Shown here: in pieces, positions 8,446-16,546 of the stretch
How the letters are laid out: every line of letters starts with the position of its first letter
Numbering within the stretch: the first letter of the stretch is position 1
NCBI GenBank assembly: GCA_022820625.1
Contig: JAJEFE010000090.1
Location: 1-64,000 of the forward strand
Direction of reading: 5' to 3'
From: Gammaproteobacteria bacterium
GTDB taxonomy: Bacteria; Pseudomonadota; Gammaproteobacteria; Steroidobacterales; Rariloculaceae
DNA: 64,000 nucleotides
The notes under the pieces: model-generated
Seen by the model: the letters and a program-made list of their open reading frames with translations, nothing else
Database searches by the model: none
Told to the model about the DNA's origin: nothing
Program-made: the position numbers and the translations under genes

Positions 8446-8642
8446 GCGGGTTCTCCCGAGCCCACTCAATGACGCCGGCCTTGTCCTTCAACCCCAATGA
8501 CCGGGTTCTCTCCCACGTATCGCGAAAAACGCCAGGCGTTCCCCGCAACGGTCAATTCGATCGTCGCAGGCTGCGCGACCGGCATGGCGCGCCGGGCCGC
8601 TTCCGCGTATAAATTCCCATTTCACCGCTGGGGACCATCTTG

Positions 8643-10754
8643 ATGAAGACTTACCTTGTGCTTGTCGCACTGATGCTGTTGGGCGGGCTGGCCGGGGCCG
8701 CGGAAGACGATCCTTACCTCTGGCTGGAGGAAATCGACTCGAAGCAGTCGCTGGCCTGGGTGGAGCGGCACAACGCAAGAACGCTTGAGCGCCTTACGGG
8801 CGATGAACGCTATGCGGCGATCTACGAGGACACCCTCGACGACTTGGCGCGCTCCGACCGGCTGCCCGCGATCCGCGTGATCGGCAACGACGTCTACGAT
8901 CTTCTGCAGGATGCGGAGCACCCCCGGGGTCTCTGGCGGCGCATGGCGCTCGGCAGTTTCCTGGCCGGCAAGACCGGTTGGGAAACGGTGCTCGATGTCG
9001 ATGCCCTCGATGCCAGGGAGAAGCGCAGTTGGGTGTTCCGCGACGCGGCCTGCCACCCGCCCGAGTACCGGCGCTGCATGCTGCTGCTGTCGCCCGGCGG
9101 CTCCGATGCCGCCGAATGGCGCGAGTTCGACCTGGTAAAGAAGGCGTTCGTGCCGGACGGTTTCGCGTTGCCCGAAGCCAAGACCTCGGTGAGTTGGTCG
9201 GATGCCGACACCCTGCTGGTCTCCATGGCCTCCGGCGGCGATACGCAGACGCTGGCCGGCTACGGGCGCCAAGTGCGCGCTTGGCAGCGCGGGGAGGCCT
9301 ACGAAGAAGCGCCGGTGGTCTTCGAGATCGATGCCAGCCACATGATGGCCCAGCCACGGCTCATCAGGGATGCGGGATCCCATTTCACCCTGTTGGTGGA
9401 TGCGGTGACGATCTTTCAGTATGAGTACTACCGGTTCGGGGATGACGGCCAGCCTGTGCGCCTGCATCTGCCCGCACCGTTCCAGTTGAGCGCCGTACAC
9501 AAGGGCTGGGTCATCGGCCTCCTGCAGCAGGACTGGCAGGGCGCCGAGGCCACCTATCCCCAGGGCGCCCTGGTGGGCTTCCGCATGACGGACCTGCTGG
9601 CGCAACCCCCTGAGGAGGCGGCGGTCCTGTTCGCGCCCGACAGCGCCCAGGCCGTCCAGTCGCTGCTGGGCACCGGGATACTGGCCACCGACGATGCCGT
9701 TTACTTCAGCATCCTCGACGACGTCGCCGGCAGGATAGTGCGGCTGTCGTACGAAGACGGGGAGTGGCAGGAGAAGGCCATCGCGCTGCCGGACAACGGC
9801 GCCACCTCCCCGGTAGCTGCCGCCCCGGAAAGCGACACTGTGATCGTCAGGTTCGAGAGCTTCACCCAGCCGCCGTCGCTCTATGCAAGCGTCGCGGGCG
9901 GCACGGCGCGCGTCATCGACAGCCAGGAAGCGAAATTCGATGCCGGCGGGCTGGTCACCGAACAGCACTTCGCCACCAGCAGGGACGGCACCCGGGTGCC
10001 CTATTTCATCGTCCGGCCGAAGGCGCTGGTCGCCGACGGCACCGCACCCCTGCTGCTGGGAGCCTACGGCGGGTTCAATCTGGCCATGACGCCGGGCTAC
10101 ATGGGTTCGATATTCGGTGCGGGAGCCCCGTTCAAGACAATCGTCGAGGCCGGGGGCAGCTACGTGTTGGCGAACATACGCGGTGGCGGCGAATACGGGC
10201 CCGGCTGGCATCTCGCCGGCATGCTCGAGAACCGTCAGCGGGTCTACGATGACTTCCACGCCGTGGCCCAGGACCTCATCGACAGAAAGCTCACGTCGGC
10301 GGAAAAGCTCGCCATCGTCGGCGCATCGAACAGCGGCCTGTTGATGGGCGTGGCCATGACGCAGCAACCGGAGCGCTACCGGGCGGTGCTCTGCGGCGTG
10401 CCGATCCTCGACATGCGCCGCTACCATCGCCTGCTCGCGGGCGCGTCCTGGATGGGCGAGTACGGCGACCCGGACGACCCCGTCATGTGGAACGTGATGA
10501 AGTCCTATTCGCCGTATCACAACCTGAGCGTCGAGGAATCCTATCCCGAAGTCTTCTTCTTCGGCTCCACCCGGGACGACCGGGTGCATCCCGGCCACGC
10601 GCGCAAGATGGGCGCGAAGATGGGCGCCATGGGGCACCCGTTCCTGTTCTTCGAGAACACCGAAGGCGGCCACGGCGCCGCCGCGGACCCCATTCAGCAG
10701 GCCAGGCTGCAGGCCCTGCAGGCGGTCTACCTGCTACAGGAACTGGACATCTGA
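8643..10754 (+). CDS. Prolyl oligopeptidase family serine peptidase (S9A-like)
   Basis: Signal peptide; DDPYLWLEEI N-terminus typical of POP; IVGASNSGLLMGVAMTQ nucleophile region; STRDDRVHPGHARKM; GGHG. Confidence 0.9.
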   Translation: MKTYLVLVALMLLGGLAGAAEDDPYLWLEEIDSKQSLAWVERHNARTLERLTGDERYAAIYEDTLDDLARSDRLPAIRVIGNDVYDLLQDAEHPRGLWRRMALGSFLAGKTGWETVLDVDALDAREKRSWVFRDAACHPPEYRRCMLLLSPGGSDAAEWREFDLVKKAFVPDGFALPEAKTSVSWSDADTLLVSMASGGDTQTLAGYGRQVRAWQRGEAYEEAPVVFEIDASHMMAQPRLIRDAGSHFTLLVDAVTIFQYEYYRFGDDGQPVRLHLPAPFQLSAVHKGWVIGLLQQDWQGAEATYPQGALVGFRMTDLLAQPPEEAAVLFAPDSAQAVQSLLGTGILATDDAVYFSILDDVAGRIVRLSYEDGEWQEKAIALPDNGATSPVAAAPESDTVIVRFESFTQPPSLYASVAGGTARVIDSQEAKFDAGGLVTEQHFATSRDGTRVPYFIVRPKALVADGTAPLLLGAYGGFNLAMTPGYMGSIFGAGAPFKTIVEAGGSYVLANIRGGGEYGPGWHLAGMLENRQRVYDDFHAVAQDLIDRKLTSAEKLAIVGASNSGLLMGVAMTQQPERYRAVLCGVPILDMRRYHRLLAGASWMGEYGDPDDPVMWNVMKSYSPYHNLSVEESYPEVFFFGSTRDDRVHPGHARKMGAKMGAMGHPFLFFENTEGGHGAAADPIQQARLQALQAVYLLQELDI

Positions 10755-10901: not shown

Positions 10902-13900
10902 ATGGCAACTTTAGTGAAAGCCGCATTCGCGGCCGTGCTGCTGCTCGGCGGTTCGGGCATCTGCCTAGCACAGGATGCGGCGGCGGAGGCGCATCCCCTG
11001 TTAGCGGCCTACGAGCGGGCGGCGGCGGTGCAGGCGCACAGCGAAGACCGGTGGGTTCTGAACCAAGCCCTGTACCCGCACTGGATCGACGATGCGACCT
11101 TCTGGTACGTGCGTGAAACAGCCGAGGGCAGCGAGTACGTTCTGGTGGACGCCGGAGCCGGAGAGAAGCGGGCCGCCTTCGACCATCAGGCGCTCGCCCG
11201 GTCCCTGGCTGAAGCCACCGGGACCGAGCTGGACGCTGCCACATTGCCGATCGTCAACGTCGAGATCGATCGGTCCGGCCTGACCTTCACGGCTTCCGGC
11301 CGCTTCTGGCAGTTTGAGCAGGATAAGCTCGAAGAACTGCAAGCCAACCCCAACGATCCAACTTTGCTCGTATCGCCCGACGGCACCCGGGCCGTCTATT
11401 CGAAAGATCACAACCTCTGGTTGAGGAAACTCGATTCGGGCGAGGAGAAGCCGCTCACCAACGACGGCGAACGCTACTACGCCTATGCCGCCAATCCCGA
11501 TGCCACCGGACGGCCGGCAATCCGGCCCGAGGCCGTCTGGTCGCCGGACTCCCGCTACCTGTTCACCGCGCAGACTGACGACCGGCAGGTGCGCTCGCTG
11601 CCGGTGATCGACTTCGCGCCGGCCGACGGCAGCATACGGCCAAGGGTTATCGACTACCGCCAGGCGCTGCCCGGGGACGAGCACATCACCCGGTTCCGCA
11701 TGACCGTCATCCACACGGAAACCGGGAAGCAGACGCCCATTCACTACCCCGACCTGGCGGCGGCGCGCATGAACGACACCCCCTTCGGCGGCAACCGGGC
11801 CTGGTGGTCGGCGGACTCGAAGGCGGTCTTCTTCGTGGACATCCTGCGCGGCGAACGGGAGGCCCGCGTGGTGCGGGCGGCGCGCGATACGGGACAGGCC
11901 CAGGTGGTGTTTCGCGAGACCACGGACACCTACCTGGAGCTCGGCTCCAACGTGTACATGCCGACCTTCGTCGTTCCCCTGCCCGAACGCGACGAGTTCG
12001 TCTGGTACTCGGAAAAGTCGGGTTGGGGACACCTGTACCTGCACGACGCCGCAACCGGCGAAGAGAAGCGGGCGCTGACCAGCGGCGAGTGGCTGGTGCG
12101 GGACGTGCTCGGCGTGGACCGGGACCGGCGGGATCTCTTCATAACGATCGGCGGGCGCCGGCCCGATGCCAACCCCTATTTTCGCGAGGTCGCCCGCGTC
12201 AACCTGGACACGGCCCGGCTGACCCTCTTGAGTTCCGGCGACGACGACCGCCTGGCGCTCTCCCCGGGCGACTTTTCGCTGCTGCTGCTCACCGTCTTCG
12301 GCCAGGATCCCGGCGCGGTTTCCGGGCTGTCTCCGGACGCCGCCTTTTACGTGGAGACCCGCCAGCGTCCGGACCGGCCCAACGTCACCGCGCTCATGTC
12401 GGCGGACGGCGACGAACTCCTGCTCGTCGAGGAGGGCGCGCCGCATGCCCTGCCGGTCGGGCAGCGCTGGCCCGAACCCTTCACCGTCACCGCCGCCGAC
12501 GGCGAAACGGAGATTCGCGGCCTGATGCTGAAGCCACAGGACTTCGATGCCGGCAGGTCCTACCCGGTGATCGACTACATCTATGGCGGTCCGCAGGTCA
12601 GCAACGTTCCCAAGGCGGGCTTCGGCTCCCTCTCCTCCCTGAGCCTCGATTCCGCCGCATCCCTGGCGGAGTTGGGGTTCGTCACGGTCATCCTGGACGG
12701 GCGCGGCACCACGGAACGCTCGCGCGCATTCCACGAATCCTCCTACGGTCGGCTGCAGACGGCGAGCAACCTGGAGGACCACATCGCCGGCATCAGGCAG
12801 CTCGCCGAGCGGTTCCCGTACCTGGACATCGAGCGGGTCGGCATCACCGGCATCTCCGGGGGCGGGTACATGGCGGCTCGGGGCATGCTGAAGTACCCCG
12901 AGTTCTTCAAGGTGGGCGTGTCCATCGCCGGCAACCACGACCAGCGGCTCTTCTGGCACAGCTGGGGCGAGCGCTACCAAGGGCTGCCCGCGGGCGACAA
13001 CTATCTGGAGCAGGCGAACCTCACGCACGCCAAAAACCTCGACGGCAAACTGCTGTTCATCCACGGCCTGCTCGACTACGGCGTGCATCCGGGCGGCCTG
13101 TTCCAACTCACCCAGGCATTGATGGACGCCAACAAGGTGTTCGACCTGGTGCTGATGCCCCAGGCGGGCCACGCCCTGCCGGGCTACGGCATGGTGCGCA
13201 TGTGGGATTACTTCGTGCGCCATCTCGCCGGAAAGGAACCGCCGCCGGGCTTCATCGCCAAGTCGTCCTCCGACTACGTGGCGGAACGGGCCAAAGCGTT
13301 TCAGATCGCTGCCATGGCCCAGCCCGAAAGGCCGCCGGAGGAGGGTTCGTCCAAGGGCAAGTGGGGCGCCCCGGTAGCGGTCACGCTGGAAACGGATGTC
13401 GGCAGCATCGAACTGGCCGTGTACCCCGAGGCCGCGCCGGAATCGGCCGGCAGTTTCCTCGACCACCTCGACCAGGGGCTCTTCGACGGCGGAGCCTTCT
13501 ATCGGGTGGTGCGCCGAAACAACGACAACGGCGCGCCGGTCATCGAAGTAATCCAAGGCGGCCTTACCAACCCCGCCAAGGCCTTGCCCCCGGTTCCCCA
13601 CGAGACCACGGAAGAAACCGGAATCCGGCACCTCGACGGCACGGTGTCCCTTGGCAGGACCCAGCCGGGCAGCGCCAGCGGCGGTGCCTTCTTCATCACC
13701 ATCGGCAACCAGCCCAGCTTGGATTTCGGCGGCGCGCGCAACGGGGACGGCATGGGATTCGCCGCCTTCGGCCGCGTAACGCTTGGCATGGATAAGGTAC
13801 ACGCAATCCACCAGATGGAGTCCACGGCGCCCACGGACTCAGCCTACCTGCGGGGTCAGTTGCTGAACGAGCCGGTGACCATCCACAAAGCCTATCGCCA

Positions 13901-13907
13901 GCCCTGA
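10902..13907 (+). CDS. S9 DPP-IV-like peptidase with C-terminal cyclophilin-type peptidyl-prolyl isomerase domain
   Basis: Signal peptide; DPP-IV-like propeller (QTDDRQVRSLPVIDFAP); VGITGISGGGYMAARG; HGLLDYGVHPGG; AGHAL; then cyclophilin pattern GSIELAVYPEAAPESAGSFLDHL...FYRVV...VIQGG...GGAFFITIG...FGRVTLGMDKVHAI in one uninterrupted frame. Confidence 0.93.
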   Translation: MATLVKAAFAAVLLLGGSGICLAQDAAAEAHPLLAAYERAAAVQAHSEDRWVLNQALYPHWIDDATFWYVRETAEGSEYVLVDAGAGEKRAAFDHQALARSLAEATGTELDAATLPIVNVEIDRSGLTFTASGRFWQFEQDKLEELQANPNDPTLLVSPDGTRAVYSKDHNLWLRKLDSGEEKPLTNDGERYYAYAANPDATGRPAIRPEAVWSPDSRYLFTAQTDDRQVRSLPVIDFAPADGSIRPRVIDYRQALPGDEHITRFRMTVIHTETGKQTPIHYPDLAAARMNDTPFGGNRAWWSADSKAVFFVDILRGEREARVVRAARDTGQAQVVFRETTDTYLELGSNVYMPTFVVPLPERDEFVWYSEKSGWGHLYLHDAATGEEKRALTSGEWLVRDVLGVDRDRRDLFITIGGRRPDANPYFREVARVNLDTARLTLLSSGDDDRLALSPGDFSLLLLTVFGQDPGAVSGLSPDAAFYVETRQRPDRPNVTALMSADGDELLLVEEGAPHALPVGQRWPEPFTVTAADGETEIRGLMLKPQDFDAGRSYPVIDYIYGGPQVSNVPKAGFGSLSSLSLDSAASLAELGFVTVILDGRGTTERSRAFHESSYGRLQTASNLEDHIAGIRQLAERFPYLDIERVGITGISGGGYMAARGMLKYPEFFKVGVSIAGNHDQRLFWHSWGERYQGLPAGDNYLEQANLTHAKNLDGKLLFIHGLLDYGVHPGGLFQLTQALMDANKVFDLVLMPQAGHALPGYGMVRMWDYFVRHLAGKEPPPGFIAKSSSDYVAERAKAFQIAAMAQPERPPEEGSSKGKWGAPVAVTLETDVGSIELAVYPEAAPESAGSFLDHLDQGLFDGGAFYRVVRRNNDNGAPVIEVIQGGLTNPAKALPPVPHETTEETGIRHLDGTVSLGRTQPGSASGGAFFITIGNQPSLDFGGARNGDGMGFAAFGRVTLGMDKVHAIHQMESTAPTDSAYLRGQLLNEPVTIHKAYRQP

Positions 13908-14086: not shown

Positions 14087-16546
14087 TTGACTGAAGCCAC
14101 AGGCTACCTGGCGCATTTGGGCAAGCGCGCCGTTTTCGGCGCACTGCTGCTGGCCGCAACGGCATTCGCCGCGGCCCAGTCGCCCATCGTGAAGCCGGGG
14201 GCGCCCGGCGAGCCGGCGCAGGAACTCACTGCCGAAGAGGCGATTGGGATTGCCGTTTCGGGCCACTCGCCGGACGACATCCGGTTCATGCGGGACATGA
14301 TTCCCCACCATCAACAGGCCGTGGAGATGGCGGAACTGGTGGCCGATCGCACCAACCGGCCGGAACTGGCCGACGCGGCCGGGCGCATCGAGCTCTCCCA
14401 GCGGGACGAGATCGAGTTCATGGAAACCTGGCTTAAGGACCGCGGCGAGCCGGCGCCGGACCCGGCGGACCACGCCGCCATGCACACCGACCAGCGCATG
14501 GCCGGCATGGCGACACCTGAGCAGATGGCCGACCTCGCCGCCGCCTCGGGAACCGATTTCGACCGGCTGTTCCTTAAGTTGATGATCACGCACCACGAAG
14601 GCGCGGTGACCATGGTCGAGGAACTGCTCGAACAGCCGGGCTCGGCTTACGATCCGGTGCTGTTCGAGTTCACGACCGACATCACCAACGACCAGTCCGC
14701 CGAAATCGAGCGGATGCACGCCTTGCTCATCACGCTGTCGGACGACCCCCGCGCCGGCCTTCAGCCCGGGTTCGAAGACGCGGGGCAGGCCATGCTGAAC
14801 CTGGAACTGGTGGCGTCGTTGCCCAGGCCGCCCGGCTTTTTCGACCCGGAGAATCCCGCCGACCTGCCGCCCGAGCCCCCACCGGACGATGACGCCGGCG
14901 AGGCAGCCGGAGAAGTTGCCGACGACCCTGAGGACGACGCCGGGGACGATGCCGAGGACGCTGCGGATTGGGAGCGCCGGCCACTGTTGAGCTTCGCCAA
15001 CACGGACATGGCCTTCCGGGACGATGTCATGTTTGCCGGCAGCTACCACGGGTTCAACGTCTATCGGCTGGATGAGGCCGGTTCGCTGGAGCAGCTAAGT
15101 TCGGTCGTGTGTCCTGGCGGGCAGGGCGACGTGTCGGTGGTGGGGAACCTGCTCATCCTGTCGGTGGAGGAGACCCGGGGCCGGCTCGACTGCGGGCTTG
15201 AGGGCATATCCGAGGACGTGAGTGAGGACCGCTTCCGCGGCATTCGCATTTTCGACATCGGCGACCTGGCCCGGCCGGTGCAGGTGGGCGCCGTGCAGAC
15301 CTGCCGCGGCTCGCACACCCACTCGGTGGTCTCGGCCGATGACGAGCGGATTGTCGTTTACAACTCCGGCACCTCCCGGATCCGCGAGGAAGAGGAACTC
15401 CCGGGCTGCATCGACGAGTTGCCCGGCGACAACCGCACCGCGCTCTTCCGCATCGATGTCATCGAGATTCCCGTCAACGACCCGGCGAACGCCCGGGTCG
15501 TGCATAGCCCGGCCGTATTCGCCGACCCCGACGGCGATACCCTTGCCGGCCTGTGGCGCGGCGGCGACCATGGCGACGACACCCAGGAAAGCACTGCCAC
15601 CGACCAGTGCCACGACATCACTGTGTTCCCTGAGCGCGCCATCGCCGCCGGCGCCTGTGCGGGCAACGGCATCCTGTTCGATATCTCCGACCCCCTGAAC
15701 CCCAAGCGCATCGATGCGGTGGTCGACAAGGGATTCGCCTACTGGCATTCCGCGACCTTCAACAACGACGGCACCAAGGTGCTGTTCACGGACGAGTGGG
15801 GCGGCGGAATGATGCCACGCTGCCGCGCCTTCGACCCCCTCAACTGGGGCGCCGACGCCATATACGACATCGTCGACGGCAAGCTTGAGTTCAGGAGCTA
15901 CTTCAAGATGCCGGCACCGCAGAACGAGCAGGAAAACTGCGTGGCGCACAACGGCTCGGTCGTGCCGGTCCCCGGCCGCGACCTCTTCGTTCAGGCCTGG
16001 TATCAGGGTGGCATTACCGTGATCGATTTCACCGACTCGGCCAACCCGGTGGAGATCGCCTACTTCGATCGCGGCCCCATCGACGAGGAGCACCTGACCC
16101 TGGGCGGCTACTGGTCCGCCTACTGGTACGACGGCAGGATTTACGGCACCGAGATCATACGCGGGCTGGATGTGCTGACGCTGCTGCCGAGCGAGCATCT
16201 GTCCGACAACGAGATTGCCGCGGCCAACCTCGCAAACCAGGGGGCGGCCTTCAATCCGCAGCGGCAGATGCGCTTCAATTGGCCGGCGGAACCCGCGGTT
16301 GCCAGGGCCTATCTGGATCAACTGGCGCGCGCCGATGCACTGCGGAGTTCGCTTGCGGCTGACCTTGATGCCGCGCTGGACCGGTCGGCCGCGGCGCTTG
16401 AGCACGGAGCCCGGGACGCAAGGCTGGCGAGGCGGCTTGAAAGGCTGGCTTCCCGGGCGAATCGGGGTGCCGGCGAGGGCGCCACAAGGACGCGGCGAGC
16501 CGGGCTGGCGGAGGCATTGGCCGGGATTGCGGCTCGGTTGCGCTGA
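14087..16546 (+). CDS. DUF305 domain plus LVIVD-type beta-propeller fusion protein, exported
   Basis: TTG start preceded by aaggagg; FMRDMIPHHQQAVEMAELV and FLKLMITHHEGAVTMVEELL (DUF305); later LVIVD-like repeats (GIRIFDIGDLARPVQVGAV, GITVIDFTDSANPVEIAYFD). Confidence 0.82.
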   Translation: MTEATGYLAHLGKRAVFGALLLAATAFAAAQSPIVKPGAPGEPAQELTAEEAIGIAVSGHSPDDIRFMRDMIPHHQQAVEMAELVADRTNRPELADAAGRIELSQRDEIEFMETWLKDRGEPAPDPADHAAMHTDQRMAGMATPEQMADLAAASGTDFDRLFLKLMITHHEGAVTMVEELLEQPGSAYDPVLFEFTTDITNDQSAEIERMHALLITLSDDPRAGLQPGFEDAGQAMLNLELVASLPRPPGFFDPENPADLPPEPPPDDDAGEAAGEVADDPEDDAGDDAEDAADWERRPLLSFANTDMAFRDDVMFAGSYHGFNVYRLDEAGSLEQLSSVVCPGGQGDVSVVGNLLILSVEETRGRLDCGLEGISEDVSEDRFRGIRIFDIGDLARPVQVGAVQTCRGSHTHSVVSADDERIVVYNSGTSRIREEEELPGCIDELPGDNRTALFRIDVIEIPVNDPANARVVHSPAVFADPDGDTLAGLWRGGDHGDDTQESTATDQCHDITVFPERAIAAGACAGNGILFDISDPLNPKRIDAVVDKGFAYWHSATFNNDGTKVLFTDEWGGGMMPRCRAFDPLNWGADAIYDIVDGKLEFRSYFKMPAPQNEQENCVAHNGSVVPVPGRDLFVQAWYQGGITVIDFTDSANPVEIAYFDRGPIDEEHLTLGGYWSAYWYDGRIYGTEIIRGLDVLTLLPSEHLSDNEIAAANLANQGAAFNPQRQMRFNWPAEPAVARAYLDQLARADALRSSLAADLDAALDRSAAALEHGARDARLARRLERLASRANRGAGEGATRTRRAGLAEALAGIAARLR

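What the first reader, a model, noticed from the sequence alone, without database searches (positions are those of the whole stretch)
10902..13907. DPP-IV-like S9 peptidase fused to a cyclophilin prolyl isomerase
One uninterrupted ORF joins a secreted S9 peptidase (GISGGG nucleophile region, LLDYGVHP, AGHAL) to a cyclophilin domain (about 13360-13907) that keeps FYRVV, IQGG, GGAFFITIG and FGRVTLGMD. Established: S9 enzymes are sensitive to proline cis/trans state and cyclophilins interconvert it. Inference: the isomerase domain may present the cleavable isomer to the peptidase or act on folded proline-rich substrates.
Basis: partly seen in the sequence, partly recalled or inferred. Interest (0 to 1): 0.78.

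Follow-up and report, generated by a model that had tools for sequence, protein, structure and literature searches.

The report
Peptidase fused to its operon-partner prolyl isomerase
A bacterial secreted peptidase is fused into one protein with a proline-flipping enzyme (cyclophilin) that related bacteria encode as the very next gene, which suggests the isomerase is a dedicated partner of this peptidase, most likely for digesting proline-containing peptides.

Summary
One open frame (10902-13907, 1001 aa) carries DPPIV_N, Peptidase_S9 and cyclophilin domains. It is not an assembly chimera: the same full-length fusion occurs in four other metagenome-assembled genomes (MAGs; 96-97% and about 70% identical). 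Both domains are under purifying selection and their trees branch alike.

The name "DPP-IV-like" needs correction. The catalytic triad is intact, but the double-Glu motif that makes DPP IV a dipeptidyl peptidase is missing, so Xaa-Pro dipeptidase activity is not supported.

The main new result is genomic. The fused S9s and six Sphingomonadaceae S9s (43-49% identical) form one clade (support 100/100). In five of those six loci the very next gene encodes a cyclophilin of the same subfamily, four times with an ATGA/GTGA stop-start overlap. In the sixth, one transporter gene intervenes. Where the S9 has an export signal, so does the cyclophilin; where it lacks one, so does the cyclophilin. The operons usually encode a TonB receptor, an MFS transporter and further peptidases.

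Best reading: a peptide-utilisation S9 with a dedicated prolyl isomerase, fused in one lineage. Isomerase activity and catalytic coupling are inferred, not shown. I found no published description.

The parts
10902..13907 (+). S9 peptidase-cyclophilin fusion gene, 1001 aa, ATG start
   Evidence: same architecture in L006-L009
10902..10973 (+). probable N-terminal signal peptide (MATLVKAAFAAVLLLGGSGICLAQ), cleavage site not tested
   Evidence: sequence and hydropathy
11319..12251 (+). DPPIV_N beta-propeller domain (aa 140-450)
   Evidence: Pfam PF00930
11496..11538 (+). place of the DPP IV double-Glu motif (about aa 199-212): motif absent
   Evidence: alignment with true DPP IVs; motif role from PMC5807507
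12651..13199 (+). Peptidase_S9 alpha/beta-hydrolase domain (aa 584-766) with triad S652, D725, H757
   Evidence: Pfam PF00326; alignments
13257..13367 (+). linker (aa 786-822), poorly conserved between lineages (35% identity, dN/dS 0.75)
13374..13904 (+). cyclophilin domain (aa 825-1001; Pfam match aa 827-976 = 13380-13829)
   Evidence: Pfam PF00160; alignment
8640..10754 (+). co-oriented upstream neighbour: S9A (prolyl-oligopeptidase-type) peptidase with a signal-peptide-like N-terminus; functional link not tested
   Evidence: Pfam Peptidase_S9_N and Peptidase_S9

Best explanation
This is a genuine periplasmic (or secreted) two-enzyme protein: an S9 serine peptidase of a subfamily without the DPP IV double-Glu motif, fused to a cyclophilin that in related bacteria is its separately encoded operon partner. 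The likely role is in taking up and degrading proline-containing peptides: the cyclophilin interconverts cis and trans Xaa-Pro bonds so that the S9 and the other peptidases of the pathway, which need one isomer, are not held up by slow spontaneous isomerisation. Shown: the architecture, its conservation and selection, the clade with adjacent S9-cyclophilin gene pairs, matched export signals (by sequence), and the peptidase/TonB context. Inferred: that the cyclophilin is an active isomerase, that it acts on the peptidase's substrates, and that substrates contain proline.
For: Domains. Fusion in five assemblies with purifying selection on both domains (dN/dS about 0.15, linker 0.75) and congruent domain trees. 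Fused S9s plus six Sphingomonadaceae S9s form one clade, 100/100. In five of the six the next co-directional gene encodes the same cyclophilin subfamily; four have a 4-nt stop-start overlap. Export signals match: both exported in L146 and L147, neither in L132, L148, L149 and L150. Loci carry a TonB receptor (five of six), an MFS transporter (four of six), M24 creatinase/prolidase-type enzymes (L132, L150), S9A (L148), DUF885 (L132, L149) and an S15-fold enzyme (L150). Outside the clade, no S9-centred locus had a cyclophilin of this type within about 1.5 kb. CypA Arg55, Gln63 and Phe113 positions are kept.
Against: No activity has been measured for either domain. Specificity for proline is not shown: the double-Glu motif and the P2-carbonyl Asn are missing. 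Several other CypA active-site residues differ (Phe60, Met61, Trp121, His126). The S15 gene in L150 fits CocE/NonD better than X-Pro peptidases, and the M24 genes are far below NCBIfam's Xaa-Pro equivalog cut-offs. The fusion is rare: 2 of 398 genomes in the order of G041 and 2 of 22 in the window's family. The cyclophilin could instead assist folding.
Confidence: 0.55

Rival explanations
1. The cyclophilin is a private folding helper: it speeds proline-limited folding or keeps the large S9 beta-propeller soluble after export, and does not act on the peptidase's substrates.
For: Periplasmic cyclophilins are generally seen as foldases (PMC4898713). Pairing with one enzyme in the same compartment is also what a private chaperone would show.
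Against: In L132 and L149 the cyclophilin is fused to DUF885, not to the S9, and most S9 propeller enzymes examined lack such a partner.
Confidence: 0.25
2. The cyclophilin domain binds peptides or other proteins without relevant catalysis (substrate capture, oligomerisation or localisation).
For: Several CypA pocket residues are replaced; an S9 without the double-Glu motif may need another way to hold substrates.
Against: Arg55, Gln63 and Phe113 positions are kept and the domain is under purifying selection like the peptidase.
Confidence: 0.12
3. The fusion is a neutral accident of two adjacent reading frames with little functional coupling.
For: Stop-start overlaps of 4 nt make fusion by a small indel easy; the fusion is rare.
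Against: The pair is kept together across 43-49% identity, with matched export signals and in different wider contexts.
Confidence: 0.07
4. Assembly or binning artefact.
For: All fused copies come from MAGs, and host assignment of the contig is doubtful.
Against: The same junction in five assemblies down to 70% identity, with purifying selection on both sides.
Confidence: 0.01

Closest known systems
Bacterial dipeptidyl peptidase IV (S9B), e.g. Pseudoxanthomonas mexicana DAP IV, PDB 5yp1-5yp4
   Same: Propeller plus alpha/beta-hydrolase order, Ser-Asp-His triad, oxyanion YGGP motif
   Different: No double-Glu motif, Asn691 position not conserved, S1 Tyr645/Tyr649 replaced by Phe/Trp, extra C-terminal cyclophilin
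Single-domain bacterial cyclophilins of the FYRVV...IQGG...GFAAFG type (L014, L015, L090-L092)
   Same: 57-62% identity for the nearest, same insertion between FYR and IQGG
   Different: Stand-alone; in the five stand-alone loci examined over up to about 19 kb, no S9 resembling the fused one lies nearby
AquaCyps, periplasmic cyclophilins with an added non-catalytic NIC domain (PMC4898713)
   Same: Periplasmic cyclophilin with an extra domain; that paper calls them the first such class with added non-catalytic domains
   Different: Here the extra domain is itself a peptidase with an intact triad
Cyclophilin-DUF885 proteins near S9 genes (L132 Novosphingobium plasmid, L149)
   Same: Same cyclophilin subfamily joined to another protein of a peptidase operon
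   Different: Cyclophilin at the N-terminus and fused to DUF885, not S9

Membership tests
Peptidase family S9 (DPP IV fold) | DPPIV_N propeller and Peptidase_S9 hydrolase domains above Pfam cut-off | tested here: met
   127 bits each against cut-offs of 22
Peptidase family S9 (DPP IV fold) | Ser-Asp-His catalytic triad | tested here: met
   S652, D725, H757, invariant in nine aligned S9s
Dipeptidyl peptidase IV proper | Double-Glu motif that binds the substrate N-terminus | tested here: not met
   Present as EE in L016, L017, L019, L020, L114, L115; absent in the fused and operon S9s; role from PMC5807507
Dipeptidyl peptidase IV proper | Cleavage of N-terminal Xaa-Pro dipeptides | not testable with these tools
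   needs an enzyme assay
Cyclophilin | Pro_isomerase domain above Pfam cut-off | tested here: met
   66.3 bits against 21.7; PDB hits to E. coli cyclophilins
Cyclophilin | Catalytic residues (CypA Arg55, Gln63, Phe113; also Phe60, Met61, Trp121, His126) | tested here: inconclusive
   First three kept, the others changed, by hand-read alignment
Cyclophilin | Peptidyl-prolyl isomerase activity | not testable with these tools
   needs an enzyme assay
Lasso peptide isopeptidase (AtxE2) | NCBIfam NF033523 score over the curated cut-off of 400 | tested here: not met
   24.2 bits
AquaCyp | Non-catalytic NIC domain built from terminal extensions and insertions | not tested
   no structural comparison made; the AlphaFold model of the cyclophilin part was of low confidence

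The most novel reading that the evidence does not exclude
A peptide-degrading system in which a prolyl isomerase is a dedicated part of the proteolytic machinery: encoded as a translationally coupled partner, exported or kept inside together with its peptidase, and in one lineage fused to it, so that cis/trans isomerisation is catalysed at the point of cleavage.
Probability: 0.45. Interest if true: 0.72.

Novelty: new variant of a known kind. Interest (0 to 1): 0.6.

Why it matters
Cis/trans isomerisation of Xaa-Pro bonds is slow, and proline-specific peptidases generally accept only the trans form (own knowledge). Whether cells use a dedicated isomerase to help peptide digestion has been hard to ask, because cyclophilins are usually general folding enzymes. 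Here one protein, and a set of two-gene relatives in cultivable sphingomonads, make the question directly testable by separating, deleting or inactivating one domain.

Tried and rejected
Assembly chimera or frameshift at the junction: rejected, same junction in five assemblies. True DPP IV: rejected on the double-Glu motif. Lasso isopeptidase: rejected, far below cut-off. Stand-alone relatives of the cyclophilin (L109-L113) checked for a nearby S9: none found. An apparent full-length fusion on a Novosphingobium plasmid turned out to be two adjacent genes. Structure prediction: peptidase part reasonable, cyclophilin part not modelled (mean pLDDT 61 for the whole, 36 for the cyclophilin alone; shallow alignments), so domain packing could not be judged and no fold search was run. 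A first S9 tree was spoiled by a reading-frame slip of mine and redone. No S9-cyclophilin fusion was found in the literature searches. More clade members were sought in 200 genomes of one further family and in two genera, with none new.

Full report
The observation. Window 10902-13907 (+) is a single open frame with an ATG start, 1001 aa. Pfam places DPPIV_N at residues 140-450, Peptidase_S9 at 584-766 and Pro_isomerase at 827-976, all well over their cut-offs. The N-terminus (MATLVKAAFAAVLLLGGSGICLAQ) looks like a signal peptide, judged by sequence and hydropathy only. The nearest solved structures are bacterial DPP IVs for the first part and E. coli cyclophilins for the second.

It is not an artefact. 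The fusion occurs over its full length in L006 (97%), L007 (96%), L008 and L009 (about 70%); L006 is the same genome as G005. Between the window and L008, dN/dS is 0.13-0.16 for propeller, hydrolase and cyclophilin, while the linker (residues 786-822) has drifted (35% identity, dN/dS 0.75). The peptidase and cyclophilin trees group the fused copies in the same way, which fits one fusion event followed by joint descent.

Host. All fused copies come from MAGs. The window contig (C121, 104 kb) carries several S9 genes unlike anything in most relatives of its genome, and by tetranucleotide use it sits with one other sampled contig rather than with the rest. The genome's listed contamination is 4.94%. 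L007, 96% identical, is filed as Alphaproteobacteria and L006 as Gammaproteobacteria. I treat the host as unsettled; this does not affect the gene itself.

What kind of S9. The triad is S652, D725, H757 and the oxyanion motif is YGGP. The double-Glu motif, which in Pseudoxanthomonas DAP IV forms salt bridges to the substrate N-terminus and is described there as essential for exopeptidase activity (PMC5807507), is present in the true DPP IVs in my set (L016, L017, L019, L020, L114, L115) and absent from the fused proteins and their nearest relatives. The Asn that contacts the P2 carbonyl (Asn691 there) is also replaced in most of the clade, and the S1 tyrosines 645/649 are Phe/Trp in the fused protein. 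So this is an S9 peptidase with the DPP IV fold, not a demonstrated dipeptidyl peptidase, and its substrate preference is open.

What kind of cyclophilin. The domain belongs to a subfamily with a longer FYRVV-IQGG segment whose nearest members are single-domain proteins (57-62% identity in L014 and L015; signal peptide visible in L109, the same gene as L014), with others in further alphaproteobacterial-type families. CypA Arg55, Gln63 and Phe113 positions are kept; Phe60, Met61, Trp121 and His126 positions differ. Activity is plausible but untested, and cyclosporin may not bind well.

The gene partnership. A plasmid search gave an apparent full-length match in Novosphingobium resinovorum. The annotation shows two adjacent genes: an S9, then 14 nt later a cyclophilin-DUF885 protein. 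Searching 401 genomes of family f226 gave five more S9s at 43-49% identity. In L146, L147, L148 and L150 the next co-directional gene encodes the cyclophilin, and in all four the S9 stop and cyclophilin start overlap by 4 nt (ATGA or GTGA); in L149 an MFS gene lies between S9 and a cyclophilin-DUF885 gene. The fused S9s and these six form one clade with 100/100 support. Of about 52 other S9-centred loci checked within roughly 1.5 kb, none had a cyclophilin of this type; one (L013) had a weak 26% match to a different cyclophilin. The cyclophilin tree keeps the fused copies together but does not resolve whether the operon cyclophilins are one group.

Matched compartments. In L146 and L147 both proteins have export signals (the cyclophilins a Tat-like and a lipobox-like N-terminus). 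In L132, L148, L149 and L150 neither has one. These readings are by eye and hydropathy, not by a signal predictor. The fused protein has one signal, at the S9 end. Moving together between compartments is hard to explain unless the two work together.

Context. Five of the six operon loci have a TonB receptor upstream (none was detected in L146), and L132, L148, L149 and L150 have an MFS transporter. Nearby are M24 creatinase/prolidase-type peptidases (L132, L150), an S9A peptidase (L148), DUF885 (L132, L149) and an S15-fold enzyme (L150). Several of these families include proline-specific enzymes, but the S15 gene scores as CocE/NonD and the M24 genes score far below NCBIfam's Xaa-Pro equivalog cut-offs, so proline specificity of the pathway is an inference. 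The window itself is rich in peptidase-type genes: S9, S15, M19, gamma-glutamyltranspeptidase and DUF885, with a TonB receptor.

How rare. Only two of 398 genomes of the order of G041 have the fusion, and two of 22 in the window's family; in 200 genomes of another family no S9 as close as E 1e-145 was found. The operon form is also patchy: one of 13 and one of 14 genomes in two genera, and one copy is on a conjugative plasmid. Patchy presence with plasmid carriage suggests horizontal movement.

Mechanism. Most likely the cyclophilin supplies prolyl cis/trans isomerisation for peptides handled by the S9 and its companions. Shown: architecture, conservation, adjacency, matched signals, context. 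Inferred: isomerase activity, proline substrates, kinetic coupling. The main rival is a private folding helper for the S9.

Literature. Searches of the held library found no description of an S9-cyclophilin fusion or gene pair. [quoted passage not shown] The library lacks most subscription journals, and no domain-architecture database was available, so prior notice cannot be excluded.

Noticed in passing
L032:1735-4008 (-), same contig as the window (C121: about 101734-104007): Second fusion of the same cyclophilin type: a PAF-acetylhydrolase-like alpha/beta hydrolase with a C-terminal cyclophilin (758 aa).
   Followed up: partly
L132:8316-10553 and L149:6413-8695: Cyclophilin fused to the N-terminus of DUF885 in two peptidase operons; no HExxH motif was found in these DUF885 proteins.
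   Followed up: partly
window 14087-16546 (+): One ORF joins DUF305 (aa 64-214) to a region resembling choice-of-anchor B (48 bits, under its cut-off of 100).
   Followed up: no
window 1-64000 and contig C121: Dense cluster of peptidase-type genes with TonB receptors: at least five S9/DPPIV_N genes and one S9A, two S15, two M19, one gamma-glutamyltranspeptidase, DUF885.
   Followed up: partly
window 12459-13904 against L006: L006 is nearly identical to the window over the hydrolase domain (dS 0.005) and identical over linker and cyclophilin (dS 0), but dS is 0.13-0.20 further upstream: recombination between strains or a mosaic assembly.
   Followed up: no
contig C121 of G000: Possible mis-binning: composition and gene content differ from most sampled contigs of the same genome.
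   Followed up: partly
L013:449-967: A different cyclophilin type (26% match) lies beside another S9 gene in G026.
   Followed up: no
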